The translations under genes and the position numbers were made by a program. Shown in pieces: positions 8,602 through 58,366 of a stretch of DNA of 64,000 bases (position 1 is its first letter; every line of letters begins with the position of its first letter). Source of the stretch: Cordylochernes scorpioides (taxonomy: Eukaryota; Arthropoda; Arachnida; Pseudoscorpiones; Chernetidae); the NCBI GenBank assembly GCA_030710605.1, contig CP092864.1:139607418-139671417 (forward strand), read 5' to 3'. The notes under the pieces are model-generated. The model had not been told where the DNA came from, searched no databases, and was given only the letters and a program-made list of their open reading frames with translations.

Positions 8602-8650
8602 GGCAACTACGAGCTTTCGGACATCAGCTGCCCTTCATCAGGTACAATGG
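8602..8650 (-). ncRNA. Hammerhead ribozyme motif, PLE1 minus arm
   Basis: On the minus strand: CTGATGA (8635-8641), an extra A, a 4 bp stem II GGGC/GTCC, GAAA (8615-8618), then GCTC. The last A of GAAA plus GCT gives a palindromic AGCT for stem III, with C as the cleavage base. Stem I is short (TAC/GTA). Confidence 0.65.
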
Positions 8651-9131
8651 GTGGTTGGAAAAAGTGAACCAATATATACATGCAGTAAATTAGCATAAGA
8701 GAAAGCTAACTAACATCTATTTAAAATAATTAAGAAATTTACATAAGAACTAAAGATAAAAGTACGAAATTTCTAAAAAATACGAAATTTCTAAAAAATA
8801 GACTAAAAATCTGTGTATGACGGATAAAAGGTAAAACACGAGAAAAAGGATGGGAAGAAGAGCGATCTAGGCACAATGAAGGAAGGAAGCGAAATATGAT
8901 GTCAGTGGCCAAGTTTAGAAAAAGCAGTATATTGAGGGGGGAGATCTATTTTCCTATTAAAACTAGGGATGGAGTTGGACACGAGAGCCTCCAGGACCAA
9001 ACGTTGATATTTATTCTTAACTTCACTGTATACCGGAATCGTGTTGCGTAGATTAAAAGAGTGGTTAAATTCGTGGCTGTGTTGATATAGTAGTGACCTA
9101 CGATCGTGGGAACGGATGTTTCGTTCGTGTT

Positions 9132-9761
9132 CTAGGACACGAGTGGCAATGGTGCGGCCAGTTTCTCCGACGTATGATTGTGGACAGTCGTTGCACGGTA
9201 TTCTGTAGATGGCATTGGAGAAAGATTGGGGGCTGGGCCTGACGGAGCTTTTTGTGAGGGGGTGGCGTAACGATGTGCCGCGGATAAAAGGTGTAGGTAA
9301 ACGACCCGTTTTTCGATTCTACTGAATAAAGGAAGGGAGCAATGAGTAAAAACGCGCTTAGAAAGAGTTTTCACGGTGGTAATTTTATGGGAGACGGGAG
9401 CATGTGATGAAAAATGCAAGTAAGAAGGGGTAAAACCGGCTTTACGAAAAACAGTTGTATGGAAACGGCCCTGGAGATTAACCACTAAAACGTCTAAGAA
9501 CGGGATACAATTAAAACGGGAAGAATTGTGGGTAAAACGTAAATCGGAATGATAGGAGTTTAAAACAGTCAGGATAGGGGAGTGGTCAGTGCTCTGATGC
9601 AAACAAAAAATGTCATCGACATATCTCGCCCACATTACTACTCCTAGGTGGATCTGGGAAACTAACCATCGGTCCAAATATGACATTACGATCTCAGCTG
9701 CGGTTGTAGAGAGAGGGCTGCCCATGGGGGAGCCTCTTATCTGCAAGGAAAAAGCGGCCAT
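9132..9761 (-). pseudogene. PLE1 minus arm: RT with internal deletion
   Basis: Encodes RT motifs GSPMGSPLSTTAAEIV and RYVDDIFC (the YVDD catalytic motif) and FLDVLV. Compared with the plus arm, about 175 bases are missing (the counterpart of 10140-10314). This shifts the frame before the GIY-YIG domain. The N-terminal half of the RT is absent, so the arm is not functional. Confidence 0.75.
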
Positions 9762-9772
9762 TAAACTCTAGG

Positions 9773-10690
9773 GTGTTCATGCCCAAGCATGTCGATGTCG
9801 ATGACATTTTTTGTTTGCATCAGAGCACTGACCACTCCCCTATCCTGACTGTTTTAAACTCCTATCATTCCGATTTACGTTTTACCCACAATTCTTCCTG
9901 TTTTAATTGTATCCCGTTCTTAGACGTTTTAGTGGTTAATCTCCAGGGCCGTTTCCATACAACTGTTTTTCGTAAAGCCGGTTTTACCCCTTCTTACTTG
10001 CATTTTTCATCACATGCTCCCGTCTCCCATAAAATTACCACCGTGAAAACTCTTTCTAAGCGCGTTTTTACTCATTGCTCCCTTCCTTTATTCAGTAGAA
10101 TCGAAAAACGGGTCGTTTACCTACACCTTTTATCCGCGGGTTACCCACGTAACTTTATCGATCGACATTTTTATACACCAAATCACGACAGTTCTATTCC
10201 TCCCCCGTTTAAAGATGTTTGCGTTCTTCCGTTTTCTACTACGAATTCCGACATCGGTTTTTATCTGCGTAAATTTGGCATCCGCACGTTTTTTAAAAAA
10301 TCACCTTCCCTAGGCACATCGTTACGCCACCCCCTCACAAAAAGCTCCGTCAGGCCCAGCCCCCAATCTTTCTCCAATGCCATCTACAGAATACCGTGCA
10401 ACGACTGTCCACAATCATACGTCGGAGAAACTGGCCGCACCATTGCCACTCGTGTCCTAGAACACGAACGAAACATCCGTTCCCACGATCGTAGGTCACT
10501 ACTATATCAACACAGCCACGAATTTAACCACTCTTTTAATCTACGCAACACGATTCCGATATACAGTGAAGTTAAGAATAAATATCAACGTTTGGTCCTG
10601 GAGGCTCTCGTGTCCAACTCCATCCCTAGTTTTAATAGGAAAATAGATCTCCCCCCTCAATATACTGCTTTTTCTAAACTTGGCCACTGA
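9773..10690 (+). pseudogene. PLE1 plus arm: RT C-terminus and GIY-YIG endonuclease
   Basis: An open frame of about 300 codons. It contains the VDDIFC remnant of the RT catalytic motif, FLDVLVVNLQG, and a C-terminal GIY-YIG nuclease: YRIPCNDCPQSYVGETGRT (about residues 208-226), followed by a conserved Arg, HERNIR and an E-A-x-x-S end. RT plus GIY-YIG in one protein defines Penelope-like elements, which nick the target and reverse-transcribe into it. The arm is 5'-truncated at the palindrome centre and lacks the N-terminal RT motifs. Its nuclease domain looks intact. Confidence 0.8.
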
Positions 10691-10925
10691 CATCTTATTT
10701 CGCTTCCTTCCTTCATTGTGCCTAGATCGCTCTTCTTCCCATCCTTTTTCTCGTGTTTTACCTTTTATCCGTCATACACAGATTTTTAGTCTATTTTTTA
10801 GAAATTTCGTACTTTTATCTTTAGTTCTTATGTAAATTTCTTAATTATTTTAAATAGATGTTAGTTAGCTTTCTCTTATGCTAATTTACTGCATGTATAT
10901 ATTGGTTCACTTTTTCCAACCACCC

Positions 10926-10970
10926 ATTGTACCTGATGAAGGGCAGCTGATGTCCGAAAGCTCGTAGTTG
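10926..10970 (+). ncRNA. Hammerhead ribozyme motif, PLE1 plus arm
   Basis: CTGATGA at 10933-10939, extra A, GGGC...GTCC stem II, GAAA at 10956-10959, GCTC, then GTAG pairing weakly with the upstream GTAC. Mirror copy of the motif at 8602-8650. Confidence 0.65.
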
Positions 10971-11569
10971 CCAATAAAGAAACTTACCACGCTGTTTACC
11001 TACTTGCTGTTTCAATTTATTGAGCGTGGCTATAATTATGTCTGATCTAACATTTTATCGAACAATTATCAATGAAATTTATACACAAATTTATTATTTC
11101 ATTATTGATTAAAATACCCGAAATCAAAGAAATCGAACACGTATTTTATGCAAATTAGCCGGTCAAATAATGATCTTCTTGCAGTCAGTGTATAAATGTC
11201 TTGGAAATTGTTGTTAATATGGGGTGTGATCGCCTTTAACTGATAGACAGGCTCTACATCGGCGACCCATACTAAGAATTAGGGAGTTTATAAGCTCCTG
11301 TGGAATCAACGCCCACTCTTTTTTTAAAGTGTGTTTCTAGCTCATAAGTGTTTCTAGGAGGGGGTTGGAGGGATGAGATCCGTCGTCCTAAATTGTTCTA
11401 TGCATGCTCAATGGGATTTAGGTCTGGAGATCGATCTGGCCAATTCATCCGAGCAATTGCATGGTTTGGAGAAAAGTGTCGACCACATCAGCCCTATGTG
11501 GACGGGCATTATCATCCATTAGAAGAAAGTTTTCTCCCATTTCAACTGATACAATACGCAGAAGGCTTC

Positions 11570-12275
11570 ACATGAAGGGCCTCTATGCTCGACGACCCAT
11601 AATTTGTATGCCATTTACACCACCTCAAAAGAGAGCAAGGGAACTTTGGCGCAGACAACATGTCGCTTGGAATCCAGATGAATGGAGCCATGTAATGTTC
11701 ACTGATGAGTCCAGATTATCTCTAAACAGTTATTATCGCCGTGTCTTTGTCTGGAGAGAGGTAGGAACCAGAAATAATCCCCGAAATATGGTTGAAAGGG
11801 ATCCCTACAGAAGCCAATGTTTTATGGTCTGGGCTGGAATCTTCTTGGGCGGTCACACAGCACCCCACATTTTTCGGCAAGGAACCCTGACTGGACCGAG
11901 GTATCGGGACAAGATCTTGGCAGCATATGTGATGCCTCAATCATTAGAAATGGTAGAAAACCTTCTTATAATGGATGATAATGCCTGTCCACATAGGGCT
12001 GGTGTGGTCGACACTTTCTCCAAAAACATGCAATTGCTCGGATGAATTGGCCAGCTCGATCCCCAGACCTAAATCCCATTGAGCATGAATGGGACAACCT
12101 AGGATGGCGGATCTCATCCCTCCAACCCCCTCCTAGAAACACTCATGAGCTAGAAACAGCCTTAACACAAGAGTGGGCGTTGATTCCACAGGAACTGATA
12201 AACTCCTTAAATCTTAGTATGGGTCACCGATGTAGAGCCTGTCTATCAGTTAAAGGCGATCACACCCCATATTAA
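11570..12275 (+). pseudogene. Tc1-like transposase, broken
   Basis: DDE-type signature in order: MFTDESRLSL (first Asp, about 11697), LLIMDDNACPHRA (second Asp, about 11975) and ARSPDLNPIEHEWD (third acidic residue, about 12075). A frameshift near 12028 separates the second and third blocks. The N-terminal helix-turn-helix part is replaced by the inverted copy of the 3' end. It would not encode a working transposase. Confidence 0.8.
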
Positions 12276-12604
12276 CAACAATATCCAAGATATTTATGCA
12301 CTGACTGCAAGAAGATCATTGCTTGACCGGCTAATTTGCATAAAATACATGTTAGAATTCTTTGATTTCGGGTATTCTAATCAATAATGGAAAAATAAAT
12401 TTGTGTATAAAATTTCAATGATAAATATTCAATAAAATTTGAGATAAATGAAAAAAATATGTTGTTCCTTTAATTTTGCGGACCAGTGTATAATGCAGTC
12501 ATTTCCCTGTGTCTTACTGATGACATCAACTTAAAAGTAGGTTCATTCACTTTTAGAAGCTGTTTCCAACTAAAAGAGCAATATCTAGCAACGTTTACTA
12601 ACAG

Positions 12605-12855: not shown

Positions 12856-12870
12856 TGGGATGAGCCCTAC

Positions 12871-14022: not shown

Positions 14023-14210
14023 GGTCACAGCGCCAACAGCGCAAAACACGTTCGTGGATGGGTTTTCATGATTTATCAAGAAATTGGGTTGGCCAAATAT
14101 CACGGAGCAAGCTAAATAAACGTTTTGTTTATTTTTGCTCCACTAGATGGCGCTCTGCTATCTAAAAAGCACATGTGCTCGTGGTCAGGAGATGCCTTCT
14201 TTATTTTTAA
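14023..14210 (+). repeat. RZ1b repeat with decayed hammerhead
   Basis: GCGCCAACAGCGC followed by AAAACACGTTCGTGG is a decayed version of the HHR at 34432-34471. The CTGACGA core is lost (GTCACAG) and GAAA is AAAA. The downstream arm (CTCCACTAGATGGCGCTCTG, CACATGTGCTCGTGGTCAGG) matches 34620-34690. Confidence 0.55.
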
Positions 14211-16273: not shown

Positions 16274-16404
16274 CTGGGACACACATGTTGTCTTCTTCTT
16301 TCTATAGCATGGAGATATCCCAACTTTACACATGTACAGGCTATGATAGTGGGTAGGGATTGGTTGAACTGCTTATATTGCAAGAACATCCCATGTCTAT
16401 ATAA

Positions 16405-16510
16405 GGTAACAAGCCCAAATCCAAATAAATAAGTAGACAAATCCAAATATATTTGGATTTGGTCTTTTTACCTTATGTTTCTAATCTATAAACCAAATTA
16501 TACCTTATCA
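16405..16510. repeat. RZ2 repeat, degraded
   Basis: Short inverted arms (CCAAATCCAAATAAATAAG and ATTTGGATTTGGTC), no ribozyme core. Confidence 0.5.
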
Positions 16511-18910: not shown

Positions 18911-19198
18911 TTTACATACTAGTTTTCGAGCCATAAGCTCTTAATATGCCTATTTCCCTATTATGAGATCAACAAGCTGGGGTTACAAGAGGGTAAATAG
19001 GTTTAAAAAAAAAAAAAAAAAAATCCTCAATGCAAGCCAATTTTTGATATAATAGAATTGTCCAGCAATTGTGTATTGTACTAATTCCTATCACTTATCT
19101 ACCGAGTGACAAGTAATTGATCGTCCTTAAACCATTATAAAATTGTGAAAAAAAAATAGTACAAATGTGATATTGTACTGGGATAGGGTTCGTAAATT

Positions 19199-19362
19199 AG
19201 GAAAAGAAAAAGGCATCTCCTTATCGGGCAACTGAAAGTTGCTGATGGCTTGCGCCATCTTTCGGAATAATTAAAAATCAATGAATAGTTATTTGAGGGC
19301 GCAAGCCATTAGCAACTTTCAAGTTGCCCGATAAGGAGAAGCCTTTTTTCTTTTCCTATGAT
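19199..19362. repeat. RZ1 palindrome without ribozyme
   Basis: Arms AAAAGGCATCTCCTTATCGG and its inverse, including AAGTTGCTGATGGCTTGCGC. Same terminal sequence as RZ1 at 23340-23620, but the HHR segment is absent. Confidence 0.65.
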
Positions 19363-20949: not shown

Positions 20950-21042
20950 AGATTATATAAAAGGGCGTACCTGGATCTGTAAAGAAAAAAAAAAAAACAA
21001 TTTTTTCTTTAGAGATCCAGGTACGCCCTTTTATATAAACTT
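20950..21042. repeat. Hairpin foldback
   Basis: TATATAAAAGGGCGTACCTG and its inverse, separated by an A-rich loop of about 30 bases. Confidence 0.65.
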
Positions 21043-22884: not shown

Positions 22885-23160
22885 CATTCTTACACCCTTC
22901 CGGCCTAAATACCCGTTTCATGGTTTTTCAAGATACTCCAAAGACCAGTTTTTTTGGTTGTTGAGGTAAAACTTGCACTTGAGGAGGGCCAACATCCCGA
23001 AACGCGTACATGGTTAGCTTTTCTTGATTAATCAAGAAACGGTATTTGGCCAATTATGCAATAATTAAAAAGCAACGATTAGTTGATATTTATTCCAATA
23101 GATGGCACAAGCCATCAGCAACTTTCAATTGAACAAAAAGGAGATTCCTTTTTCTTAATA
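22885..23160 (+). repeat. RZ1 monomer 1 with decayed hammerhead
   Basis: Ribozyme remnant at 22976-23014: GGGCCAACATCCC, GAAA and CGCGTAC remain, while the CTGATGA core reads TTGAGGA. The downstream arm has CTTGATTAATCAAG and the GGCACAAGCCATCAGCAACT segment. Confidence 0.65.
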
Positions 23161-23339: not shown

Positions 23340-23620
23340 ACACCAGTGTTCTCACATAATTCTGGCCTTAACTACCCGTTTCATGATACCTGAATGACCA
23401 ATTTTTTTGGTCGTTGAGGTACAGCTTTCACCTCGCTGATGAGGGCCAACAGCCCGAAACGCGTCCGTGGTTAGTTTTTCTTGATTAATCAAGAATAGGT
23501 ATTTGGCCAATTCTGGAATAATTAAAAAATCAACGAGAATAGTTGATATTTATTCCGATAGATGGCGCAAGCCATCAGCAACTTTCAGTTGCACGATAAG
23601 GAGATGTCTTTTTCTTAACC
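23340..23620 (+). repeat. RZ1 monomer 2, head to tail with monomer 1
   Basis: Same sequence as 22885-23160, about 455 bases downstream and in the same orientation. Its hammerhead core is intact. Confidence 0.7.
23431..23470 (+). ncRNA. Hammerhead ribozyme motif, RZ1
   Basis: CCTCG, CTGATGA, stem II GGGC/GCCC with loop CAACA, GAAA, CGCGTC, CGTGG. Stem I has one mismatch (CCTCG with CGTGG). Stem III ACGCGT is self-complementary and cleavage would follow GTC. Confidence 0.75.
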
Positions 23621-23639
23621 TTCTATTACTGTTAAAATG

Positions 23640-25349: not shown

Positions 25350-27425
25350 GTAAGTGTAATTGTTTCTTGTTATTTTACGATATATATATATATTGCGTAT
25401 GATATTGTTTTTTACAGCACAATACAACAATGTTGGCAAGTTTCTCTAGAGTGGAATGTCGAGGTTGATTAAAATCAATTAGTTTGTAGAGTCAATGAAT
25501 CAAATTTTCCATTCTCTTTTTGTTATTTTACGATATAAAAAGAGAATGGAAATTTTGATTCATTGACTCTACAAACTAATTGATTTTAATCAAAATGAAG
25601 GAGATATAGAATAAAATAAAAGTAAAATATACCATATACATTTTTTTTGCCAAATATATATTGCCAAATCGTATTATGTACTTTGAGATATTAAAATTTA
25701 TTGCCCTCTATCGTTAAAACTTTGAGATATAATGGGGGGAAGAGGCAAAGATAAACCTTTGCCATTTTGGAAACATTTCTTAACCTCTTAAGAAATCAGG
25801 TTACATAAATATTTAACATTTACTATTTCAACACATTATCTAACTAATATTAATTCCATATCAAATAAAATGATAAAAACACCAACTTCTTATTTTAAAA
25901 ATGGTCACAAAAATAAAAGTAGATGGTAATCCTTTAAAACATTTTTGGACCTATACTAATAATCTTAATTACAGAATAAATTATTTACTATACTATACAT
26001 ATCTTACATTTTCATATGCACATGATTTAATCTAATGTTTTTTAAATATTTATATTTGTTGTTTATAAGCAGCAAGTTGAAAAAGTATTGATTTTTTTAC
26101 ACTCCCATTATCGTCTGCCAAATTAAAATTTTCTTTTGCTACTAATTAGCTAATGGAAACATTTGTCTGACAGAAATATTTCATGGCAAAAAAAAAAATT
26201 TTTTGATTTCTCCCCTTATAAACCATTCTATGAATATTTCTATTTATTTTATAAAATTTAGTAATATATAATATACAGTAAAATTCTTTTATAGCAAGCC
26301 CTAACAGGATTGAACATTTGGTTCACTATAGGTATGGCTCATTATATACGCAGTCGAACCTCTTTAATTCAACACTCCAAGGGATCAGAGCTTTCTGTTG
26401 AATTAAAGAAAGTGTTGAATTAAAGTTAGATGATTAGCTAATCATCTAACTTGCTAAAATAATATTCTTTAAATAGCTTTGTCATATAAATTGATCATAT
26501 TAATTGAAACCATTGTGTGTGTGTACTTTTTTGTATTATTTTTTATTTTCATGATTAACTTTTAATATCAGGGACAAAATGGCAATAATACATATTTTTG
26601 AAGCAAATAATTACAAATAATATTTTATTCTAATTGAAGAATATAGCAGTTGAAAGGAAATAAATATGGAAAATAAAAAGAAAATTTAAAAATAATATTT
26701 TTAAATAATCATGGAGAGAGAGATATATTTTAAAAAATTCCTTTATAGATGTCTGTTTTTGCACTGAAATCCTATTCAGGATGTATTCCAGATGGTCTAT
26801 TTTAAAAAAACATGCATGTCTTTCTTCCTATGAAATGTGTTTTAAATAACAAAGTTTTTATTGTATTAAAGACATCCACTGCTGCTACAGGTGTTATTGA
26901 TTTTGTGTTTAAATCTTTTATAATAACATGGAAATGGAATATTGAAATAAAATGTTATCATAATCATTGTGGCTACATTTTACGAAGATTTATTTATTTA
27001 AAAGGAAATCATTTGTAAATTTCAAAATAACTAAAATATTTCAATGCTGAAAATTAAAAAGAAAATAATATTATTAATTTGCGCGCGATTCCTAAATTCT
27101 CGTGTAAAAATAAACAACACTCGCAACATTGTGCAACGGCACTGCAAAGTGAAACTTAAACTAACAGAAATCAAAAGTGCGCAGGCGCGATCCTATCGGT
27201 GCCCGCCGTTTTCGCCGCTTTATACCTTTAATACCCTTTTGGCAGTAAAGTTGTATGTAAAAAAAAACATTCAAATGTCGAAATTTGAATTTTAAAATGG
27301 TCGAACTATCGAACTGTCATATTATCGATACAGTCGAATTACGGTTTGTTATTTGATAAGTCGGAAGTCGGGATATCAGAATGTGGTCAAATTATCGCCG
27401 AGTGTCGAATTAAGGAGGTTATACT
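25350..27425. other. AT-rich intron with hairpin and pogo-like element
   Basis: 25468-25590 forms a strong hairpin (arms of about 53 bases, loop about 16). From about 26351 (CAGTCGAACCTCTTTAATTC) to about 27425 (its inverse, GAATTAAGGAGGTTATACTG) lies a pogo-like element without a recognisable transposase. The remainder is low-complexity AT sequence. Confidence 0.5.
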
Positions 27426-28150: not shown

Positions 28151-28410
28151 AAAATAAAAATGGGGATTAATTAAAGTTTTTTATAAGGGAAGGTTTGCTA
28201 AATCATAGGTTCATTTTAGAGGGGTTTAGCTGTATATGTGTGGTAAATAAACCACATTACTATTTAGGAAAAAGGCATCTCCTTATCGTGTAAATGAAAG
28301 TTGCTGATGGCTTGCGCCATCTATCGGAATAAATATCAACTATTCTCGTTTATTTTTAATTATTCCAGAATTTGCCAAATACCCATTCTTGATTAATCAA
28401 GAAAAGCTAA

Positions 28411-28450
28411 CCACGGACGCGTTTTGGGCTGTTGGCCCTCATCAGCGTGG
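28411..28450 (-). ncRNA. Hammerhead motif, RZ1, one core change
   Basis: Minus strand: CCACG, CTGATGA, GGGC/GCCC stem II, AAAA in place of GAAA, CGCGTC, CGTGG. Stem I is a perfect 5 bp helix. Loss of the catalytic G (G12) should abolish or greatly reduce cleavage. Confidence 0.75.
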
Positions 28451-28555
28451 TGCAAGCTGTACCTCAATAGCCAAAAAAAAAGGTCATTCAGGCATCCTGA
28501 AAAATCATGAAACGGGTAGTTAAGGCCAGAATTGCGTGAGACCGTGACACAATGT

Positions 28556-28596
28556 GAAAAATGATGAGGGCTAACAGCCCGAAATGCGTCCATGGT
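28556..28596 (+). ncRNA. Hammerhead remnant, RZ1
   Basis: ATGATGA (first core base lost), GGGCTAACAGCCC, GAAA, TGCGTC, CATGG. The stem I partner is missing. Confidence 0.5.
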
Positions 28597-28904
28597 TAGC
28601 TTTTCTTGATTAATCAAGAATGGGTATTTGGCCAATTCTGGAATAATTAAAAATCAATGAGAATAGTTGATATTTATTCCAATAGATGGCGCAAGCCATC
28701 AGCAACTTTCAGTTGCACGATAAGGAGATGCCCTTTTTCATAATAAATGCACCTATTCCCGTACAATATCACATTTGTACTATTTTTTCACATATTACTA
28801 TTGTTTTACCATACCTTCACATTGTAGACATTCCAATAATTTCCGTAACTGCAAATTGATTCAAAGTTAAGACCTAAAATCAAATTTAAACATTAGGTAC
28901 CTGC

Positions 28905-29056
28905 ACAAGGCAATAAGACCAAATCCAAATAAATAAATAGTGTGTGATGTTTCGGTAACAGCATTGTTACCATCTTACAGAAATGCCACACACTATTTAT
29001 TTATTTGGTCTTATTACCTTGAGTTTATAATCCATAATCCAAATTTTGCCTTATTG
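28905..29056. repeat. RZ2 insertion with 12 bp TSD
   Basis: TTAGGTACCTGC flanks it at 28893-28904 and 29057-29068. Inverted arms; the centre has GGTAACAGCATTGTTACC and decayed cores. Confidence 0.75.
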
Positions 29057-29233
29057 TTAGGTACCTGCTTCATGTGAAGAAGGGCAGACTAGGTTTGGCT
29101 AGTCCTCTTTTTTTTTTTCTTGTATTCATTTACATTTTTTTTTTCAGAATAAATTTATCCAATAATTAAAGAAAATAAGTAAATACAGCATAATCTCTTT
29201 AATTAAGCTGATTTAATATTAACACTTTGTAAA

Positions 29234-29385
29234 AACAAGGTAATAAGACCAAATCCAAATAAATAAATAGTGTGTGACATTTCGGTAACAGTTTTGTTAC
29301 CAAAATTTTACACACTATTTATTTATTTGGATTTGGTCTTATCACCTTATTTTTATAATCTATAATCCAAATTGTGCCTTATATC
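29234..29385. repeat. RZ2 palindrome
   Basis: AAGGTAATAAGACCAAATCC and its inverse around GGTAACAGTTTTGTTACC; no CTGANGA core. Confidence 0.65.
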
Positions 29386-29691: not shown

Positions 29692-29750
29692 CAGTACTTT
29701 TGTCTGAAGATGGTAACAACGCTGTTATCGAAACGTCACACACTATTTAT
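29692..29750 (+). ncRNA. Hammerhead ribozyme motif, RZ2
   Basis: CTGAAGA (29704-29710), one T, stem II GGTAAC/GTTATC, GAAA (29730-29733), CGTC, then ACACAC. Stem III is the palindrome ACGT. Stem I pairs TGT with ACA and is weak beyond that. Confidence 0.7.
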
Positions 29751-30168: not shown

Positions 30169-30336
30169 CAAGGTAATAAGACCAAATCCAAATAAATAAA
30201 TAGTGTGTGACGTTTCGGTAACAGCGTTGTTACCATCTTCAGACAAAAGTACTGAATGAGAAAATTTTACCATAGCATGTTTTTAAGTAGTTCCTGTTAT
30301 CAAGTGTGTAAACAAGATCCAAATTGTGCCTTATCA
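30169..30336 (-). repeat. RZ2 insertion with 14 bp TSD and intact hammerhead
   Basis: AGTGTATCAAAATA flanks it at 30155-30168 and 30337-30350. At 168 bp it is the best-bounded single copy with a ribozyme. It starts AAGGCACAATTTGGAT-like on its sense strand and ends CTTATTACCTTG. Confidence 0.8.
30200..30250 (-). ncRNA. Hammerhead ribozyme motif, RZ2, core intact
   Basis: Minus strand: TTTTGT, CTGAAGA (30242-30236), T, GGTAAC AACGCT GTTACC (perfect 6 bp stem II), GAAA, CGTC, ACACAC. Confidence 0.75.
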
Positions 30337-33418: not shown

Positions 33419-34287
33419 AGATTAATCTCCTCCAAACAATAAGCGGTCTTGTTATAAGAAATACCAGAGACAGCTACTATAATGACAGTATCAACAGGAT
33501 ATCTATCCCATCATTTTCAACACTTTCATTGCAGATATCATTAACAGAAGTTTGAGCAACATCCACTACCCATTTCCAACCTCAGAAGTAATATACAGTA
33601 TTTTTAACTTCTCTTTCCTCACTATCTACCTCACAAAATCAGATTTAGCTTGTTGAATTTATTTGTATTAGGTCTTATTTTCTTGTATCTATAATCCAAA
33701 TTGTGCTTTATAACCACAAATCTAGGTTATGTAAAATTGTCTTTTTCGAGGCCAACTTTGTTATTGTGTTTGCCTTCACTCTCTCTCTCTTTGTGTTCTT
33801 TTTTTTGGTCTACAAATGGTATCTAGTACAGCCACTTCTAATCGAGACTTTCTCTTGTTTAGAAAAGCAAAAAAAGCTCCCCAATTATCAGAAGCCCTAA
33901 TTAAAAAAAAAAAAAAACCTCAATACCACTTTAAACTGTACCTTGATAATTTTACATTTTTCGTTGATTCAGATTTCTTTTTGTGTAGTACCCCCAAAAG
34001 ATTAAAATTATCGTCCAAAGAGATACAAATTTTTCATCAACATTATTATTAAAAAAAAGAACACTTATAAGTATGAATAAATAGTACAAAAGTGAAATTG
34101 TACTGAGATAAATTGAGGAAAAGGCATCTCCTGATAAGGCAACAAAAAGTTGCTGATGACTTGTGCCATCTTCGGAATAAATATCAACTATTCTTTTTTT
34201 AAATTATTTCAGAAGAAGTATGTTTATATATATTTTAGAAAAAATAATAGAAAAAAATAAAAAGGTCAGGTGTTGATATTAAAAATA

Positions 34288-34697
34288 AAAAAGGCATCTC
34301 CTGACCACGAGCACATGTGCTTTTTAGATGGCAGAGCGCCATCTAGTGGAGCAAAAATAAACTAAATGTTTATTTAGCTTGCTCCGAGATATTTGGCCAA
34401 CCCAATTTCTTGATAAATCAAGAAAAGCCATCCACGAACGCGTTTCGCACTGTTGGCGCTCGTCAGCGTGGAGTAGGCTGTAACCACTGTGACCAAAAAG
34501 ATTTTTTGGTCCCAATGGCTTCCCGAGAAATCAAGAAATGGGTATTTGAGGCCAAATTTGCGTAAAGACGCTTAACACATGAAAAACAAAAGAAAAAATA
34601 AAAGATAAGTGGGTCAGGTGTTGACTTTTTGCTCCACTAGATGGCGCTCTGCCATCTAAAAAGCACATGTGCTCGTGGTCAGGAGATGCCTTTTTTA
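34288..34697. repeat. RZ1b inverted pair with intact hammerhead
   Basis: Arms AAGGCATCTCCTGACCACGA and its inverse, each with CACATGTGC and the GGCAGAGCGCCATCTAGTGG segment. The ribozyme is in the left (minus) arm only. Arm fragments also lie at 34095-34215 and 34740-34860. Confidence 0.75.
34432..34471 (-). ncRNA. Hammerhead ribozyme motif, RZ1b, fully intact
   Basis: Minus strand: CCACG, CTGACGA, GCGC/GTGC stem II with loop CAACA, GAAA, CGCGTT, CGTGG. Stem I is a perfect 5 bp, all core bases are present and stem III ACGCGT is palindromic. Relative to RZ1, stem II pair 2 is flipped from G-C to C-G on both strands. Confidence 0.82.
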
Positions 34698-38436: not shown

Positions 38437-38950
38437 TTTTTATTTTCTCAACGTTTCGACAAAATCTATTGTCTTCGTCAGGAGAAGTAAATAAAAATAA
38501 AGCATTTGGCAAGGCGTTAAAAATTGTTCTGAGGTTTGCAAGGGCGTTCTCACGTGATTTTTCGAATTTAGTACAACATCTAAAGCGCGAGTCAAAAACA
38601 AATATTAAACTCGTCACAGACTATGATCTTGGGAATAAAAATATATAATAATAAAATTATAATAAATTAAGTAAAAATAAATAAATAAAGTAATATAATA
38701 ATAATAATCACAAAGATTATTATATATATTTATAACTATTATGTCCAATTTTTTATCTATCTTATTAACTACTTTTTAAATTTAAAAATGAAGCATATTG
38801 TTGCGGAATATCTTCAAAAGTATTTATAGTTCTTTTCCCAAATTCTCGTGATACCCATCCCTCTAAAAATAATTTTTCCTTTTTAATTTTTATATTCCTA
38901 TGAAATATCTCAATATCATTCCAATCTGGCCTATGTCCTGAAAATAATTA
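38437..38950 (-). pseudogene. PLE3 3' fragment (GIY-YIG end) with hammerhead
   Basis: Minus strand from 38942: GHRPDWNDIEIFHRNIKIKK, then LEGWVSREFGKRTINTFEDI and a stop at about 38770. This is the C-terminal part of a PLE GIY-YIG nuclease (G-H-x-x-D-W, conserved E and N-T). About 280 bases further is a hammerhead, as in PLE1 and PLE2. 5'-truncated, a different family from the other two. Confidence 0.7.
38441..38490 (-). ncRNA. Hammerhead ribozyme motif, PLE3
   Basis: Minus strand: CTTCTC, CTGACGA (38481-38475), extra A, GACAA/TTGTC stem II (5 bp), GAAA (38457-38454), CGTT, GAGAA. Stem I is 5 bp and stem III is the palindrome ACGT. All core bases are present. Confidence 0.78.
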
Positions 38951-39122: not shown

Positions 39123-39854
39123 AAAATTACTAAGACCCCACATCCCTGTTCCCTGTCTTGGCCTTGGGAGCTAGCCACCAGTTCCCTAATGACCATGACA
39201 GAGCACCATGACTCCTATGTTCTCCAAGACTGCAGCGGCTTCCCCTGATCTGAGCCAGGACTTATGACTAACCCCATTGTTGTCATCTCTCTTGTCTTGA
39301 TATCATTGATTTTCACACTTAATAGAGCAAGTTTTTTTTTTCACCACAAATACAATTCTAGTGTGATAACCAATCAGAACTAAAAGACCAAATTAGTTTT
39401 AAGACCAGAAATGTATCCTCTCCTGTCTTAAAGGGAGACTGTTGTTGCTTATTCCTCAAGTTGTTTAAACGATCTCCATTAGGTTCCATTGTCTCAGCTT
39501 TTCTATTATAGTCCTGGGGTTTCCCAGAGGTCTTTTTTGGAGGATTTGATACAATTCAATAGATGTTCAGGACTGGCTGGTTGGGAATCGCATTTGGGGC
39601 ATTTCAGGAATGTTTTGATTTTTCCATTAAATTAAAGGGAGACTTGACTGTATATACACCCATGGACAAAACTTATACCTTTTAGCATGTATATCAGAAT
39701 CCAGACAATACCTCTGAAAGATATCACAGTGACCTTTATTGAAGACACACAAGATAACCAAATGTGAACAAATTGACTTTGTCTTAAAAAAAAAAAAAAG
39801 ATGACTAGTGACATCAAAGACACTTCCTTTTATTTAAGAGTGTATATGGATGAA

Positions 39855-40977
39855 CCTAGAGGCTGTTGTTGGGTTCCGTGCTGCCTGGAGTATAGGAGAT
39901 CCATCTATGCTTCCTTCCTGAGGTGAATCTGTATAAGACCCTGGAGGCTGTTGTTGGGTTCTGTGCTGCCTGGAGTATAACAGCTCCTTCCTTCCTGAGG
40001 TGAATCTGTATAAGACCCTGGAGGCTGTTGTTGGGTTCTGTGCTGCCTGGAGTATAACAGCTCCTTCCTTCCTGAGGTGAATCTGTATAAGACCCTGGAG
40101 GCTGTTGTTGGGTTCTGTGCTGCCTGGAGTATAGGAGATCCATCTATGCTTCCTTCCTGAGGTGAATCTGTATAAGACCCTGGAGGCTGTTGTTGGGTTC
40201 TGTGCTGCCTGGAGTATAACAGCTCCTTCCTTCCTGAGGTGAATCTGTATAAGACCCTGGAGGCTGTTGTTGGGTTCTGTGCTGCCTGGAGTATAACAGC
40301 TCCTTCCTTCCTGAGGTGAATCTGTATAAGACCCTGGAGGCTGTTGTTGGGTTCTGTGCTGCCTGGAGTATAGGAGATCCATCTATGCTTCCTTCCTGAG
40401 GTGAATCTGTATAAGACCCTGGAGGCTGTTGTTGGGTTCTGTGCTGCCTGGAGTATAACAGCTCCTTCCTTCCTGAGGTGAATCTGTATAAGACCCTGGA
40501 GGCTGTTGTTGGGTTCTGTGCTGCCTGGAGTATAGGAGATCCATCTATGCTTCCTTCCTGAGGTGAATCTGTATAAGACCCTGGAGGCTGTTGTTGGGTT
40601 CTGTGCTGCCTGGAGTATAACAGCTCCTTCCTTCCTGAGGTGAATCTGTATAAGACCCTGGAGGCTGTTGTTGGGTTCTGTGCTGCCTGGAGTATAGGAG
40701 ATCCATCTATGCTTCCTTCCTGAGGTGAATCTGTATAAGACCCTGGAGGCTGTTGTTGGGTTCTGTGCTGCCTGGAGTATAACAGCTCCTTCCTTCCTGA
40801 GGTGAATCTGTATAAGACCCTGGAGGCTGTTGTTGGGTTCTGTGCTGCCTGGAGTATAACAGCTCCTTCCTTCCTGAGGTGAATCTGTATAAGACCCTGG
40901 AGGCTGTTGTTGGGTTCTGTGCTGCCTGGAGTATAGCAGCTCCTTCCTTCCTGAGGTGAATCTGTATAAGACCTGTG
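39855..40977. repeat. Minisatellite, mixed 77 and 85 bp units
   Basis: About 14 units starting CTGGAGGCTGTTGTTGGGTT. Short units carry TAACAGCTCCTTCCTTCC, long ones TAGGAGATCCATCTATGC at the same place. Units are nearly identical. The array stays open in several minus-strand frames because the unit lacks stops; I do not regard it as coding. Confidence 0.9.
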
Positions 40978-41979: not shown

Positions 41980-42030
41980 ATCATAATTTTCCTGTAGAAG
42001 GGCATTATCCCGAAAGCTCGAAAAACCTTT
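41980..42030 (+). ncRNA. Hammerhead-like motif, PLE remnant
   Basis: AATTTTC, CTGTAGA, extra A, GGG/CCC stem II, GAAA (42012-42015), GCTC, GAAAAACC. Stem I pairs TTTTC with GAAAA perfectly and stem III would be AGCT, but the core reads CTGTAGA instead of CTGATGA. Followed by TTTGTTTACCTTG, similar to the end of PLE1. Confidence 0.55.
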
Positions 42031-46026: not shown

Positions 46027-46356
46027 AATGAGTTTTAAAAATTGTAAAAAAAAAATGCATCGGCCGGGAATCGAACCCGAGCCGCCCGCGTGGCAGGCAA
46101 GCATTCTACCACTGAACCACCGATGCTTATAAAAAATGGCCATATTTGGGTATTCATTCCATTCCGGATTACTCCGCGTAAAAAAAAAAGTTCTTCAAAT
46201 GAAAAAAAAGAAATAGCCAAAAATACTAATCAAAATGTAGCCGAAAATTTTCCTCTTGTTTATAAAAAGCGACATGCAAAATTTGGTACCAATTGGTTCA
46301 GTAGTTTTTGAGTTTATCGCGAAACAGACAAACATTGACTTTTATATATATAGAGA
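45796..46356 (-). mobile_element. Helitron-like element containing a tRNA gene
   Basis: Right end reads on the minus strand TCTCTATATATATAAAAGTC, a Helitron 5' end; left end has the GC hairpin and CTAT in place of CTAG. The tRNA-Gly lies inside, next to the second 83 bp repeat, so the structure is nested. Confidence 0.5.
46056..46126 (-). tRNA. tRNA-Gly (GCC)
   Basis: 71 nt with discriminator A. Acceptor stem GCATCGG/CCGATGC, A box GGTTCAGTGGTAGAATGC, anticodon loop CTGCCAC (anticodon GCC), B box GGTTCGATTCC. One T-G wobble in the anticodon stem compared with the usual gene. No intron. A short T-rich stretch follows the 3' end. Confidence 0.85.
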
Positions 46357-53936: not shown

Positions 53937-54000
53937 CATTAGTTTAATATTAAAACAATAATAAACAATAAGAGGAGCTTCTTGTGTAGATTTCTTTATT

Positions 54001-54042
54001 ACCACAAGCTTTCGAACAGAACGTTCTTCATCGGGCGTGGAT
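54001..54042 (-). ncRNA. Hammerhead-like motif, PLE2 minus arm
   Basis: Minus strand: CCACGC, CCGATGA, extra A, GAAC/GTTC stem II, GAAA, GCTT, GTGGT. Second core base is C instead of T in both arms, so activity is doubtful. Stem III palindrome AGCT. Confidence 0.55.
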
Positions 54043-54372
54043 AGTAAAACGTGCTAACATGCTATTAGAGGAGAAAAACTAATATATACACCAATAAATT
54101 TACATATTGAAGAGAAAATAGCGTAAAAAGAGAATAAAACATAAATATTTAAAATGAAATTTACATAATACAAGCGTGACGACTAAAAAATAAGCAATAA
54201 ACTTGAAAGAGATTAAAAACTAAGGTAAAATTATTATTAAAACGGCGACATCCCTACACCTAAAGAACAAAGAATAAAACAGTATATGGAAGTTAAAATC
54301 TACCAGACCAAGGAGGGTCCCACCCAGTGCTGCAACCATCTTTGAGATATAAGAGGGGGGGTGAAAGACAAG

Positions 54373-56321
54373 CTATTTATAAAGTATCTGGTAAATGTCT
54401 GGGAGGTCTATTTTGCGGTTACAACTATTGTTTTGTGTGGAAATAATAGATTCTAGGCAGAGTCGGTGATATTTGTTATGTATATGCCGGTATTTAACTT
54501 GAGGATGGTCGAGATCAAAACTATGGCCTGTTTGTGCTATATGCGTGAAAATTAAGGATTTGGGATCTTTATTGCGGATGTTACGTCTGTGATGCCAGTA
54601 GTTCTTCCTGTTTCTCCAACATAAGAAGTTGGGCAATCCAGGCACTGTATGGAATAAACTGCGCCGGTAGAGTTTATGGGTAGGGTGGGTTTGTCAGATT
54701 TGGTGATGTGATGTCTAAGGATGGTGGCTAAGCTGGGGGGACTATTGTAGAGAACTTTTATGCCGTATGGTCGTAGGACTCTGGAAATGGATACTGCGGC
54801 AGGGGAGAACGGGAGCCAACAAGTGGCCCTGTGAATTGTAGTGGCTCTTTGGACACGTGGATCAAAAGTATGTTTTACTATGAAATCTATGGGATAACCA
54901 GCGGTTGTTAATAAGGAATGGATTCTAGATCTCTCTATTGTTTTAAAAATGGGTAAGGAACAATGGGTAACAATTCTTTTAGTTAAGGTCCTGACTGTAT
55001 TAATTTTAAAGGAGATGGGACTATTGGAGGAGAAATGCGTATATTGGGGAGGGATATGCTTCTTATGAAAAACAGAGGTGTGAAAAGACTGAGGGGTGCG
55101 AATAATAAGGATGTCTAGGAAAGGCAAAACAGAACCTATTTCTGTTTCGTATGTAAACTTAATATGGGGGTTGAAATCGTGCAAGGTGCTGTATGTGAGT
55201 TGAAGGCTGTCTGTTTTAATAATGCAAAAGATATCATCTACATATCTCCTCCAATAGTAAATATCGGAAGGGAGGGCTTGATTGATCCACGCGTCCAAAG
55301 AACCCATGACTATTTCAGAGATGATTGATGATAGGGGACTACCCATAGGGGTTCCTCTGGTCTGTTTATAAAACTGCTTGTTGAAGGTGAAAGTGCAGAC
55401 AGAGAGGCAGAGAGAAGCCAGTTGCAGGATATGGGAGGCTGTTTGTGTGTCAATGTTATTGGCAACCAGGAACGATTGCAACTTGTCAGCAATGAGAGAG
55501 TGTGGCAGTGAGAGGTATAAGGACGTGACATCAAAAGACACCATACTGTGTAGGGGTGGTGGTTGTAAATTAAGGAGGTCTTCTATGAAACTGGGGGGGT
55601 GCGTAATGCTGTATGTGTTAGGATGGTCTTTCATGAGAGGGGACAAAAAACTTACCAAAAACTTGGCTACAGAGTAGGCTGGAGAAAGATGATAAGCTAT
55701 TATGGGCCTGAGTGGGACCCCCGGCTTGTGTATCTTAGGCAAGCCATAAATATAAGCTTCCCTATCCAGGCAAGATGTAAATAGGACAAATTGATCAGGT
55801 GTGATGATGCTGGATTTCTTCATTTCGCATAGCGCCTTTCTGAATGATTTGGTCAACGCAAGATTTTCCTGGGGTGAAATGGAAGAAAAGGTAGTGTTGT
55901 CCTGGAGAATGTCCGTCATCTTAGAAAGATAGTCTGAGCGGTCAAGTACGACAGTGTGGCTTCCTTTGTCAGCTTTAATGAAAATGAGAGACTTGTAACT
56001 TTGCAACTTCTTAATGATCTGGCGATGTCTATTGTTGGAAGGTGGTATCTGTGAGGGTCTGCTGAGAATTTGAACTGCGGCGTTTCGTACTTTAAGAGTT
56101 TCAAGATGATTAAGTGACCTTGTGACGCCTTCGATTCCGGCAATTATTCTAGGGATGTCCGGTTTAGCTGGGGGGATGAATTGAAGACCTAACGCTAAGA
56201 TCCTCTCCTCTCTATCAGAAAGCTTGGTTGAAGACAGATTTAGGACGTTGGGAAGAGCAGATCCCGTGGACTCGGCGACATCAGGAAAATTAAATTTTAT
56301 ACCACCAATTTTAAATACCAC
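54373..56321 (-). pseudogene. PLE2 minus arm: RT and GIY-YIG with frame break
   Basis: Main frame 56321-54552 (589 codons): N-terminal conserved block, RT motifs FIKADKGSHTVVLDRSDY, GLPKIHKPGVPLRP, MVSFDVTSLYLSLP, RGTPMGSPLSSIISEIVMGS and WRRYVDDIFC. These are all the signature RT blocks, including YVDD. Then comes a GIY-YIG start YSIQCLDCPTSYVGETGRT. The nuclease continues in another frame (54645-54373: HRRNIRNKDPKS, IAQTGHSFDL, CLESIIS). The break is in the GETGR region and also loses some residues there. The longer of the two arms. Confidence 0.85.
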
Positions 56322-56356
56322 CTTCCAACAATAGACATCGCCAGATCATTAAGAAG

Positions 56357-57990
56357 TTGCAAAGTTACAAGTCTCTCATTTTCATTAAAGCTGACAAAGG
56401 AAGCCACACTGTCGTACTTGACCGCTCAGACTATCTTTCTAAGATGACGGACATTCTCCAGGACAACACTACCTTTTCTTCCATTTCACCCCAGGAAAAT
56501 CTTGCGTTGACCAAATCATTCAGAAAGGCGCTATGCGAAATGAAGAAATCCAGCATCATCACACCTGATCAATTTGTCCTATTTACATCTTGCCTGGATA
56601 GGGAAGCTTATATTTATGGCTTGCCTAAGATACACAAGCCGGGGGTCCCACTCAGGCCCATAATAGCTTATCATCTTTCTCCAGCCTACTCTGTAGCCAA
56701 GTTTTTGGTAAGTTTTTTGTCCCCTCTCATGAAAGACCATCCTAACACATACAGCATTACGCACCCCCCCAGTTTCATAGAAGACCTCCTTAATTTACAA
56801 CCACCACCCCTACACAGTATGGTGTCTTTTGATGTCACGTCCTTATACCTCTCACTGCCACACTCTCTCATTGCTGACAAGTTGCAATCGTTCCTGGTTG
56901 CCAATAACATTGACACACAAACAGCCTCCCATATCCTGCAACTGGCTTCTCTCTGCCTCTCTGTCTGCACTTTCACCTTCAACAAGCAGTTTTATAAACA
57001 GACCAGAGGAACCCCTATGGGTAGTCCCCTATCATCAATCATCTCTGAAATAGTCATGGGTTCTTTGGACGCGTGGATCAATCAAGCCCTCCCTTCCGAT
57101 ATTTACTATTGGAGGAGATATGTAGATGATATCTTTTGCATTATTAAAACAGACAGCCTTCAACTCACATACAGCACCTTGCACGATTTCAACCCCCATA
57201 TTAAGTTTACATACGAAACAGAAATAGGTTCTGTTTTGCTTTTCCTAGACATCCTTATTATTCGCACCCCTCAGTCTTTTCACACCTCTGTTTTTCATAA
57301 GAAGCATATCCCTCCCCAATATACGCATTTCTCCTCCAATAGTCCCATCTCCTTTAAAATTAATACAGTCAGGACCTTAACTAAAAGAATTGTTACCCAT
57401 TGTTCCTTACCCATTTTTAAAACAATAGAGAGATCTAGAATCCATTCCTTATTAACAACCGCTGGTTATCCCATAGATTTCATAGTAAAACATACTTTTG
57501 ATCCACGTGTCCAAAGAGCCACTACAATTCACAGGGCCACTTGTTGGCTCCCGTTCTCCCCTGCCGCAGTATCCATTTCCAGAGTCCTACGACCATACGG
57601 CATAAAAGTTCTCTACAATAGTCCCCCCAGCTTAGCCACCATCCTTAGACATCACATCACCAAATCTGACAAACCCACCCTACCCATAAACTCTACCGGC
57701 GCAGTTTATTCCATACAGTGCCTGGATTGCCCAACTTCTTATGTTGGAGAAACAGGAAGAACTACTGGCATCACAGACGTAACATCCGCAATAAAGATCC
57801 CAAATCCTTAATTTTCACGCATATAGCACAAACAGGCCATAGTTTTGATCTCGACCATCCTCAAGTTAAATACCGGCATATACATAACAAATATCACCGA
57901 CTCTGCCTAGAATCTATTATTTCCACACAAAACAATAGTTGTAACCGCAAAATAGACCTCCCAGACATTTACCAGATACTTTATAAATAG
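56357..57990 (+). pseudogene. PLE2 plus arm: RT and GIY-YIG with same frame break
   Basis: 484 codons from QSYKSLIF onward, matching the minus arm throughout except Pro to Leu at the FLDIL motif (VLLFLDIL). The same frame break occurs after GETGRT, and the nuclease end continues at 57718-57990. 5'-truncated relative to the minus arm by about 90 residues. The extreme similarity indicates a recent event. Confidence 0.85.
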
Positions 57991-58324
57991 CTTGTCTTTC
58001 ACCCCCCCCTCTTATATCTCAAAGATGGTTGCAGCACTGGGTGGGACCCTCCTTGGTCTGGTAGATTTTAACTTCCATATACTGTTTTATTCTTTGTTCT
58101 TTAGGTGTAGGGATGTCGCCGTTTTAATAATAATTTTACCTTAGTTTTTAATCTCTTTCAAGTTTATTGCTTATTTTTTAGTCGTCACGCTTGTATTATG
58201 TAAATTTCATTTTAAATATTTATGTTTTATTCTCTTTTTACGCTATTTTCTCTTCAATATGTAAATTTATTGGTGTATATATTAGTTTTTCTCCTCTAAT
58301 AGCATGTTAGCACGTTTTACTATC

Positions 58325-58366
58325 CACGCCCGATGAAGAACGTTCTGTTCGAAAGCTTGCGGTAAT
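58325..58366 (+). ncRNA. Hammerhead-like motif, PLE2 plus arm
   Basis: CCACGC, CCGATGA, extra A, GAAC/GTTC, GAAA (58351-58354), GCTT, GCGGT. Differs from the minus arm at one stem I position (GCGG versus GTGG). Confidence 0.55.

What the first reader, a model, noticed from the sequence alone, without database searches (positions are those of the whole stretch)
8602..58366. Dense set of hammerhead ribozyme motifs in PLEs and small repeats
At least a dozen sites share CTGANGA, a 3-6 bp stem II, GAAA, a very short stem III, a cleavage base and often a pairing stem I. They occur in three PLE families (8602, 10926, 38441, 54001, 58325) and in RZ1/RZ2 short repeats (21821, 23431, 28411, 29692, 30200, 34432, 36293, 38270, 38295). 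HHRs in PLEs and small circular-RNA retrozymes in animals are established classes. The specific families, and several per 10 kb, are what I see here.
Basis: partly seen in the sequence, partly recalled or inferred. Interest (0 to 1): 0.9.

Follow-up and report, generated by a model that had tools for sequence, protein, structure and literature searches.

The report
Hammerhead motifs in Penelope-type retroelements
This stretch of what looks like an animal genome is crowded with mobile elements whose ends carry the sequence of a small self-cutting RNA, and the short ones look as if they were inserted by the same kind of machinery as the long Penelope elements beside them.

Summary
A full hammerhead (HHR) descriptor finds 6 strict and 8 relaxed sites, against 0 in 130 shuffles and 0 for 400 permuted cores. 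None reaches an Rfam gathering score. The PLE sites fit the published class of minimal, dimer-type HHRs.

The short repeats need re-reading. RZ1 (41 matching arms) is not a tandem retrozyme: 15 of 17 close neighbour pairs are head-to-head, 0 tail-to-tail. Five RZ1 insertions have 11-14 bp target-site duplications (three exact) and a roughly 30-nt tail at one end, like the two PLE insertions here and Penelope elements in print; the other RZ1 twins lack clear signs. RZ2 is a defined unit of about 280-335 nt with a canonical core; its twins have one tail, and one single copy has a 13-bp duplication. Best reading: short non-autonomous elements inserted by PLE-type machinery. RZ2 bears on the open question of what mobilises animal retrozymes. 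Cleavage, circular RNA and host are untested.

The parts
8561..11044 (.). PLE1: head-to-head pair of 5'-truncated Penelope-type copies, 3' ends outward, inserted in the terminal repeat of a Tc1-like element
   Evidence: arms 97.2% and 99.7% identical; 12-bp TSD ATCTAACATTTT at 8549-8560 and 11045-11056; the other terminal repeat of the Tc1-like element holds the site unsplit: rows 8502-8560/12492-12434 and 11045-11550/12445-11940 overlap by the same 12 bp; RT match in left arm 26.5 bits, under Pfam cut-off 29.6; 42% identical to PLE2
8605..8647 (-). PLE1 HHR, left arm: extra A, stem II 5 bp, AGCU palindrome, stem I 3 bp
   Evidence: also listed by a model built without it, 14.2 bits, E 0.32
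10927..10969 (+). PLE1 HHR, right arm, same design
11014..11044 (+). PLE1 31-nt tail, right end only
   Evidence: sequence, ends set by TSD
53951..58444 (.). PLE2: head-to-head pair with RT frame, 3' ends outward
   Evidence: arms 99.86% identical over 2101 bp; 14-bp TSD at 53937-53950 and 58445-58458; RVT_1 46 and 45.5 bits
54000..54040 (-). PLE2 HHR, left arm, core CCGATGA (C4 instead of U4)
   Evidence: relaxed core only
58324..58364 (+). PLE2 HHR, right arm, core CCGATGA
   Evidence: relaxed core only
58414..58444 (+). PLE2 31-nt tail, right end only
   Evidence: sequence, ends set by TSD
38444..38487 (-). PLE3 HHR: extra A, stem II 5 bp, ACGU palindrome, stem I 5 bp; short C-terminal frame at 38768-38938-, PLE-like by eye only
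41986..42025 (+). relic of a further PLE-like HHR (stem I 5 bp kept, core damaged)
   Evidence: model match 20.0 bits, E 0.0077, read
29698..29743 (+). RZ1 HHR, intact (extra U, stem II 7 bp, ACGU, stem I 3 bp)
30203..30248 (-). RZ1 HHR, intact
61994..62144 (.). RZ1 short twin; arms overlap at HHR stem II; tail at right end only
   Evidence: 14-bp TSD 61980-61993/62145-62158; tail and overlap
28905..29056 (.). RZ1 twin, tail right
   Evidence: 12-bp TSD TTAGGTACCTGC; tail
30169..30336 (.). RZ1 insertion: long left arm with intact HHR, right arm reduced to about 20 nt of tail
   Evidence: 14-bp TSD AGTGTATCAAAATA; sequence
29229..29385 (.). RZ1 twin, tail right
   Evidence: 10 of 11 TSD match; tail
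16398..16508 (.). RZ1 twin, tail right
   Evidence: 10 of 11 TSD match; tail
34277..34611 (-). RZ2 copy B, single 335-nt unit inserted in another RZ2 copy, no tail
   Evidence: 13-bp TSD GGTCAGGTGTTGA 34264-34276/34612-34624; RNA fold z -8.67 for the 363-nt stretch 34250-34612
34431..34472 (-). RZ2 HHR of copy B: canonical core, stem II GCGC/GUGC, ACGCGU palindrome, stem I 6 bp
   Evidence: Rfam HH9 26.0 bits, below cut-off 52
23344..23626 (+). RZ2 copy A with canonical-core HHR at 23436 (mismatch in stem I)
   Evidence: RNA fold z -6.27
28263..28551 (-). RZ2 copy E, left arm of a twin, HHR with G12 to A
28562..28738 (+). RZ2 copy E2, right arm of the same twin, starts inside the HHR; tail follows
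22887..23158 (+). RZ2 copy F, decayed HHR at 22979
19203..19351 (.). RZ2 twin without HHR, tail at left end only
14029..14208 (+). RZ2 copy C, starts at, or has a deletion up to, HHR stem II

Best explanation
The window holds at least five families of elements that carry a type I hammerhead motif near the 3' end. Two are Penelope-like elements and a third probably is. Two, RZ1 and RZ2, are short families without coding sequence, inserted in the PLE manner; most likely they are non-autonomous PLE derivatives or satellites. Proposed cycle: (1) a copy or tandem copies are transcribed (inferred). (2) The HHR, whose stem III is only the palindrome ACGU, AGCU or ACGCGU, can cut only when two copies pair (inferred from anatomy and the literature). 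(3) A PLE enzyme cuts AT-rich DNA on both strands and starts copying inside the RNA at one of two sites about 30 nt apart, giving an end with or without tail (reported for an anole PLE; inferred here). (4) Two 5'-truncated cDNAs are joined head to head, often at a palindrome; in some short RZ1 copies that palindrome is HHR stem II. The products (head-to-head twins, one tail, short target-site duplications) are seen directly in part of the copies. The HHRs in most RZ1 copies are decaying, mostly at CpG, like neutral dead copies.
For: HHR descriptor 6/8 hits versus 0 in 130 shuffles and 0 for 400 permuted cores. RZ2 stems on five copies: two pairs changed on both sides, two on one side, stem II 95% of cells paired. 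Head-to-head neighbours within 80 bp: RZ1 15 of 17, 0 tail-to-tail. TSDs in 9 of the 12 insertions given to (a chosen set, mostly those with a tail): exact 12-14 bp for PLE1, PLE2, RZ2-B and three RZ1; 10 of 11 for two RZ1; 9 exact for one RZ2 twin. PLE1 also has its unsplit target site in the other repeat of the Tc1-like element. Tails: PLE1 and PLE2 one each; RZ1 twins 5 of 15 one tail, 10 none; three RZ2 twins one each, one of them inferred by setting nested copy B aside; no twin with two. The same anatomy, with a 31-bp tail on one of two inverted pLTRs and head-to-head palindromes, is described for bdelloid Penelope (PMC3846280, passages). An anole PLE cuts and extends both strands and starts inside the RNA (PMC11167929, section 3 in full).
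Against: Only 2 of the 19 RZ1 stretches that span the core (at most 4 gaps) pass the descriptor, and core positions are hardly better kept than flanks (10.3% versus 12.0% mismatches outside CpG), so RZ1 copies show no selection on the ribozyme. Of 15 RZ1 twins, 10 have no tail and 11 no TSD at their ends. PLE2 carries C4 in both arms yet looks recent, so catalysis may not be needed. Covariation in RZ2 is reached by 56 of 500 shuffles and stem I is only 63% paired. ViennaRNA gave no open hammerhead core in any of 7 dimers. A model from PLE3 and RZ1 found PLE1 only at E 0.32 and did not list PLE2 or RZ2 up to E 10. RZ2-B is a single unit without tail. Of five RZ2 neighbour pairs, three are head-to-head (one is nested copy B against its host), one direct, one tail-to-tail. 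No PLE coding was found by RZ1 or RZ2; the partner PLE is unknown.
Confidence: 0.75

Rival explanations
1. RZ1 and RZ2 are only solo pseudo-LTRs or 5'-truncated 3' ends of ordinary PLE families whose coding copies lie elsewhere in the genome; nothing is non-autonomous.
For: Tails and TSDs as in PLE1 and PLE2; truncated single ends such as 33671+ and 35386-; solo pLTRs are known (PMC3846280 passage).
Against: RZ2 copies A, E and F start within about 10 nt of each other in unrelated flanks and share a 3' end, so RZ2 is a defined unit of about 280-300 nt; no PLE coding match next to RZ1 or RZ2 better than chance; 41 RZ1 and 11 RZ2 stretches far exceed coding PLE copies in the window.
Confidence: 0.35
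2. RZ2 (and perhaps RZ1) are animal retrozymes: tandem transcripts self-cleave, circularise and are copied back.
For: RZ2 size 335 nt, canonical core, strongly folded RNA (z -8.67 and -6.27); two RZ2 copies lie in direct orientation at 22887-23158 and 23344-23626; retrozymes are about 170-400 nt with TSDs longer than 4 bp, and PLEs are the suspected mobiliser (PMC7229834, parts 1-2 of 6 and passages).
Against: No RZ1 or RZ2 tandem array in the window; RZ1 twins are inverted repeats in which the HHR faces its own complement; circular RNA not testable here.
Confidence: 0.3
3. RZ1 is a MITE (DNA transposon) and the HHR likeness is accidental.
For: Palindromic, short, very numerous, ends look like inverted repeats; 10 of 15 twins have no tail.
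Against: In 5 of 15 twins the two ends differ by the tail; TSDs vary from about 11 to 14 bp; one insertion is a single arm plus 20 nt of tail; HHR descriptor hits with matched stems.
Confidence: 0.05
4. The motifs are chance or repeat-inflated matches without ribozyme identity.
For: No Rfam gathering hit; the looser pattern CTGANGA..GAAA is only 13 versus 4.8 expected.
Against: Full descriptor never met in shuffles or with permuted cores; five unrelated families; changes on both sides of two RZ2 pairs; a review says all available PLE sequences show such motifs (PMC6155905 passage).
Confidence: 0.05

Closest known systems
Minimal type I HHRs of Penelope-like elements (Cervera and de la Pena 2014; Lunse et al. 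2017; neither held, known here from passages of citing papers)
   Same: Type I core in PLEs, no real stem III, dimer-type design
   Different: Specific families; one extra nucleotide after A9 in the passing PLE and RZ1 motifs (whether those papers note it I could not check); PLE2 has C4
EN-containing Penelope of Adineta vaga (PMC3846280, passages)
   Same: Head-to-head copies, palindromic junctions, 31-bp tail on one inverted end, short TSD
   Different: Here the same anatomy also marks non-coding insertions of about 110-530 bp
Poseidon PAc of Anolis carolinensis (PMC11167929, section 3)
   Same: Tail explained by two RNA start sites; HHR present; a stem-loop at the start site, and a hairpin also in the RZ2 tail
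   Different: There no start-site difference between strands was seen; here no twin has two tails. The RZ2 tail hairpin loop is not notably AC-rich
Metazoan non-LTR retrozymes (PMC7229834, PMC7761336)
   Same: RZ2 size, type I HHR, no coding, highly folded RNA, TSD longer than 4 bp
   Different: No tandem array seen; twins and tails of PLE type
Short nonautonomous Penelope elements of heliconiine butterflies (PMC6685494, two passages)
   Same: Short, non-autonomous, called Penelope, prominent in some species
   Different: The word hammerhead does not occur in its main text

Membership tests
Minimal PLE-type hammerhead (dimer design) | Core CUGANGA...GAAA with stems I and II and cleavable H17 | tested here: met
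   6 strict sites, 8 with C4 allowed
Minimal PLE-type hammerhead (dimer design) | No hairpin stem III | tested here: met
   Only palindromes ACGU, AGCU, ACGCGU without loop
Minimal PLE-type hammerhead (dimer design) | Sits near the 3' end of a PLE | tested here: met
   PLE1 and PLE2; PLE3 is a PLE by eye only; RZ1 and RZ2 lack PLE coding
Minimal PLE-type hammerhead (dimer design) | Self-cleavage as a dimer | not testable with these tools
   needs in vitro transcription
Classical type I hammerhead of Rfam | Gathering score of an Rfam HHR family | tested here: not met
   No HHR hit; best HH9 26.0 bits versus 52
Penelope-like element (PLE1, PLE2) | Reverse transcriptase | tested here: met
   RVT_1 46 and 45.5 bits for PLE2; PLE1 26.5, under cut-off 29.6, but 42% identical to PLE2
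Penelope-like element (PLE1, PLE2) | GIY-YIG endonuclease | tested here: inconclusive
   VYSI...SYVGETGR-type stretch by eye; Pfam listed no GIY-YIG domain at E 0.001
Penelope-like element (PLE1, PLE2) | TSD, inverted copies, optional tail | tested here: met
PLE-type non-autonomous element (RZ1, RZ2) | PLE insertion anatomy: head-to-head twins, one tail, TSD | tested here: met
   met in part of the copies: 10 of 15 RZ1 twins lack a tail and 11 of 15 a TSD
PLE-type non-autonomous element (RZ1, RZ2) | Ends shared with an autonomous PLE of the same genome | tested here: inconclusive
   none in the window; genome not held
Metazoan retrozyme (RZ1) | Tandem repeats with HHR in each | tested here: not met
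   15 of 17 neighbours inverted, 2 direct
Metazoan retrozyme (RZ2) | Tandem repeats with HHR in each | tested here: inconclusive
   no abutting tandem in the window; two direct copies 185 nt apart; genome not held
Metazoan retrozyme | Circular RNA | not testable with these tools
   no RNA-seq
MITE (RZ1) | Equal terminal inverted repeats and constant short TSD | tested here: not met
   unequal ends in 5 of 15 twins, TSDs of about 11-14 bp

The most novel reading that the evidence does not exclude
RZ2 is a true animal retrozyme, and its insertion scars (head-to-head twins with one hairpin-bearing tail, a 13-bp duplication on a single unit) show that Penelope machinery mobilises retrozymes; in RZ1 and RZ2 the hammerhead's stem II also acts as the place where reverse transcription stops and the two cDNAs join.
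Probability: 0.22. Interest if true: 0.75.

Novelty: new variant of a known kind. Interest (0 to 1): 0.5.

Why it matters
A review of animal retrozymes says that their repeats show no conserved motif that would betray the autonomous element they use (PMC7761336 passage), and the metazoan retrozyme paper names PLEs as a strong candidate (PMC7229834 passage). Insertion scars of PLE type on short HHR repeats would make that testable in any assembly. PLE2, which looks recently inserted with a C4 core, also suggests that cleavage may not be needed for insertion, in line with the in vitro anole result.

Tried and rejected
Rfam at gathering cut-off gave no HHR. A first descriptor without the extra nucleotide found 4 sites against 1.1 expected and missed the PLE motifs. 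A DNA pattern scan of viral contigs for RZ1 found nothing; a PLE2 protein scan matched a peptide pattern in 3 stretches, none a relative. MAFFT misaligned PLE1 with RZ1, so the covariance model was built from three sequences only. Rejected: MITE reading of RZ1 (unequal ends, variable TSD); retrozyme reading of RZ1; microRNA reading of those Rfam sub-threshold hits that coincide with RZ1 and RZ2 palindromes (others were not followed). RZ1 covariation was not counted because stem I hardly varies. The host could not be identified; no genome is held.
Full report
Observation. The loose pattern CTGANGA N4-30 GAAAC occurs 8 times against 0.96 expected, and CTGANGA N4-30 GAAA 13 times against 4.83. 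A full descriptor (adjacent stem I of at least 3 bp, core, at most one extra nucleotide before stem II, stem II of at least 4 bp, GAAA, palindromic stem III, H17) is met 6 times, or 8 times if U4 may be C, and never in 130 shuffles. With 400 permuted cores the same descriptor finds nothing in the real window. I fixed the descriptor after seeing the hits, so these controls measure specificity and are not a blind test. The hits belong to five families: PLE1 (8641-, 10933+), PLE2 (54034-, 58330+), PLE3 (38481-), RZ1 (29704+, 30242-) and RZ2 (34466-). The two copies of PLE1 and of PLE2 are arms of one insertion each, so they are not independent.

Design. In the passing PLE1, PLE2, PLE3 and RZ1 motifs one extra nucleotide (A or U) stands between A9 and stem II; RZ2 has the canonical core. 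An extra nucleotide in the core is known from a viroid hammerhead (title of De la Pena and Flores 2001 in reference lists; figure legend in PMC3705267 with an extra A; its exact place in the core is recalled). Stem III is never a hairpin in the passing sites: it is a palindrome, AGCU or ACGU, or ACGCGU in RZ2. Two molecules or two tandem copies would have to pair, as a review states for PLE HHRs (PMC7761336 passage). Rfam gives only sub-threshold matches: HH9 for two RZ2 sites and Hammerhead_1 for PLE3 at 10.8 bits, E 8.1, in a local scan. ViennaRNA folds of 7 motifs: the PLE2 monomer gives stems I and II with an open core; PLE3 and both RZ1 monomers give stems I and II plus extra pairs across the core; none of the 7 dimers gives an open hammerhead core.

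PLEs. PLE2 encodes RT-type protein (RVT_1 46 and 45.5 bits); PLE1 reaches 26.5 bits, under the cut-off, and is 42% identical to PLE2 over 216 columns, up to a SYVGETGR stretch that looks like GIY-YIG; Pfam listed no GIY-YIG domain. PLE3 has only a 57-residue C-terminal frame, PLE-like by eye, without a tblastn match to the other two better than chance. PLE1 and PLE2 are each a pair of 5'-truncated copies in head-to-head orientation with both 3' ends, and so both hammerheads, facing out. PLE1 has a 12-bp and PLE2 a 14-bp exact target-site duplication. PLE1 lies in the terminal repeat of a Tc1-like element, and the other terminal repeat shows the site unsplit: the two self-matches on either side of PLE1 overlap there by exactly 12 bp. 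At the right end, and only there, each PLE has 31 extra nucleotides before the duplication. This is the published Penelope anatomy: inverted pLTRs, a 31-bp tail on one of them, short TSD, palindromes at head-to-head junctions (PMC3846280, passages). An anole PLE cuts and extends both strands and starts copying at internal sites that define the tail; its hammerhead mutants still insert in vitro (PMC11167929, section 3 in full). PLE2's arms are 99.86% identical over 2101 bp, yet both carry C4; if C4 weakens cleavage (recalled), a seemingly recent insertion did not need it.

RZ1. A profile finds 41 stretches at E at most 1e-3, most of them single arms. Of 17 neighbour pairs within 80 bp, 15 are head-to-head, 2 direct, 0 tail-to-tail. 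Of the 15 twins, 5 have exactly one tail (15889, 16399, 28904, 29228, 61985), 10 none, none two. TSDs: exact 12 and 14 bp for 28904 and 61985, 10 of 11 for 16399 and 29228; none at the ends of the other 11 twins. A further insertion at 30169-30336 has an exact 14-bp TSD, a long left arm with an intact HHR and a right arm of only about 20 nt of tail. In 6 of 15 twins (23662, 28904, 29228, 29554, 38009, 61985) the overlap of the two arms contains HHR stem II; in three of these (29228, 29554, 61985; 17-20 nt) it is little more than stem II. A hairpin at the junction overlaps by its nature, so this is a hint, not proof, of joining there. Among 19 stretches spanning the core with at most 4 gaps, mismatches to one intact copy are 18 of 175 at core positions outside CpG, 79 of 656 in flanks and 26 of 72 at CpG columns: neutral decay, no visible constraint. 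A few of the 19 are twin junctions or distant matches.

RZ2. Eleven stretches match. Copies A, E and F share their 5' start within about 10 nt and their 3' end while flanks differ, so this is a defined unit of about 280-300 nt; copy B is a 335-nt single unit with a 13-bp TSD and no tail, inside another RZ2 copy. Five copies hold all or part of the HHR. On their alignment 76% of stem cells pair against 26-44% when slid; stem II is 95% paired, stem I 63%; two pairs show a change on both sides and two on one side; against shuffled 3' letters the paired percentage is reached by 6 of 500 and the covariation by 56 of 500. With five sequences this is suggestive, not proof. RNA of B and A folds far better than shuffles (z -8.67, -6.27). 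Of five neighbour pairs three are head-to-head, one direct, one tail-to-tail; one of the three is B against its host copy. Three RZ2 twins each have one tail: 19203-19351, 28263-28738, and a third (34113-34213 with a right arm ending at 34704) that I infer by setting nested copy B aside. All three tails hold a 6-7 bp hairpin. The 28263 twin has a 9-bp exact TSD; none was seen for 19203, and only an off-end match for 34113. Copy E2 begins inside the HHR; copy C begins there or has a deletion up to it.

Independent model. A covariance model from PLE3 and two RZ1 motifs listed 53 matches up to E 10. The strong ones are RZ1 and its own members. PLE1 appears twice at E 0.32; PLE2 and RZ2 do not appear; a match at 41986-42025 (E 0.0077) is a relic with a 5-bp stem I, an extra A, GGG/CCC and AGCU but a damaged core.

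Interpretation. The PLE hammerheads are ordinary members of a published class. RZ1 and RZ2 show PLE-type insertion scars in part of their copies and no PLE coding sequence beside them, so they are best seen as short non-autonomous PLE-type elements; short nonautonomous Penelope elements are mentioned for butterflies (PMC6685494 passage). What seems new is the combination of hammerhead, defined short unit and PLE scars. Of the listings from searches, no title or abstract shown, and no passage I opened, describes it; the library holds open papers only, and the two key papers on PLE hammerheads were not held.

Limits. No host genome, RNA data or assays were available. That the host is an animal is inferred from the elements and gene fragments. 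All counts come from one 64-kb window.

Noticed in passing
6206, 33066, 59801, 62823 (+) and 27969-28014 (-): Five repeats of about 300-370 bp each begin at a truncated twister-like motif (Rfam twister-P1 37-44 bits, below cut-off 67.2). Truncated twisters at RTE 5' ends are mentioned in PMC7761336 (passage).
   Followed up: partly
62019-62090, 29257-29328, 38229-38342, 19198-19358, 34620-34845: These sub-threshold Rfam microRNA matches coincide with RZ1 and RZ2 palindromes and are not microRNA evidence.
   Followed up: yes
54034 and 58330: Both arms of PLE2 carry C4 in the hammerhead core, and both break reading frame at the same place.
   Followed up: partly
34332-34349 (-), and similar in copies C and D: RZ2 carries CCACTAGATGGCGCTCTG, which resembles a CTCF site (recalled, not tested).
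   Followed up: no
20952-21039, 1273-1374, 25468-25590: Further palindromes without a hammerhead; possibly other fold-back elements.
   Followed up: no
33671 (+), 35386 (-), 38945-39000: Single RZ1 3' ends with tail, without a hammerhead.
   Followed up: no
18870 and 48379 (+): Another repeat family ends at 18870 in TATAATCCAAATAGTCTTATCA, similar to the RZ1 tail; its copy at 48379 does not.
   Followed up: no
8502-8560 with 11045-12492: A Tc1-like element with inverted ends, split by PLE1; its transposase match is below the Pfam cut-off.
   Followed up: partly
393-1013 (-), 46056-46126 (-), 39852-40973: An RDD-family frame, a tRNA gene, and a tandem array with a 77-bp unit.
   Followed up: no
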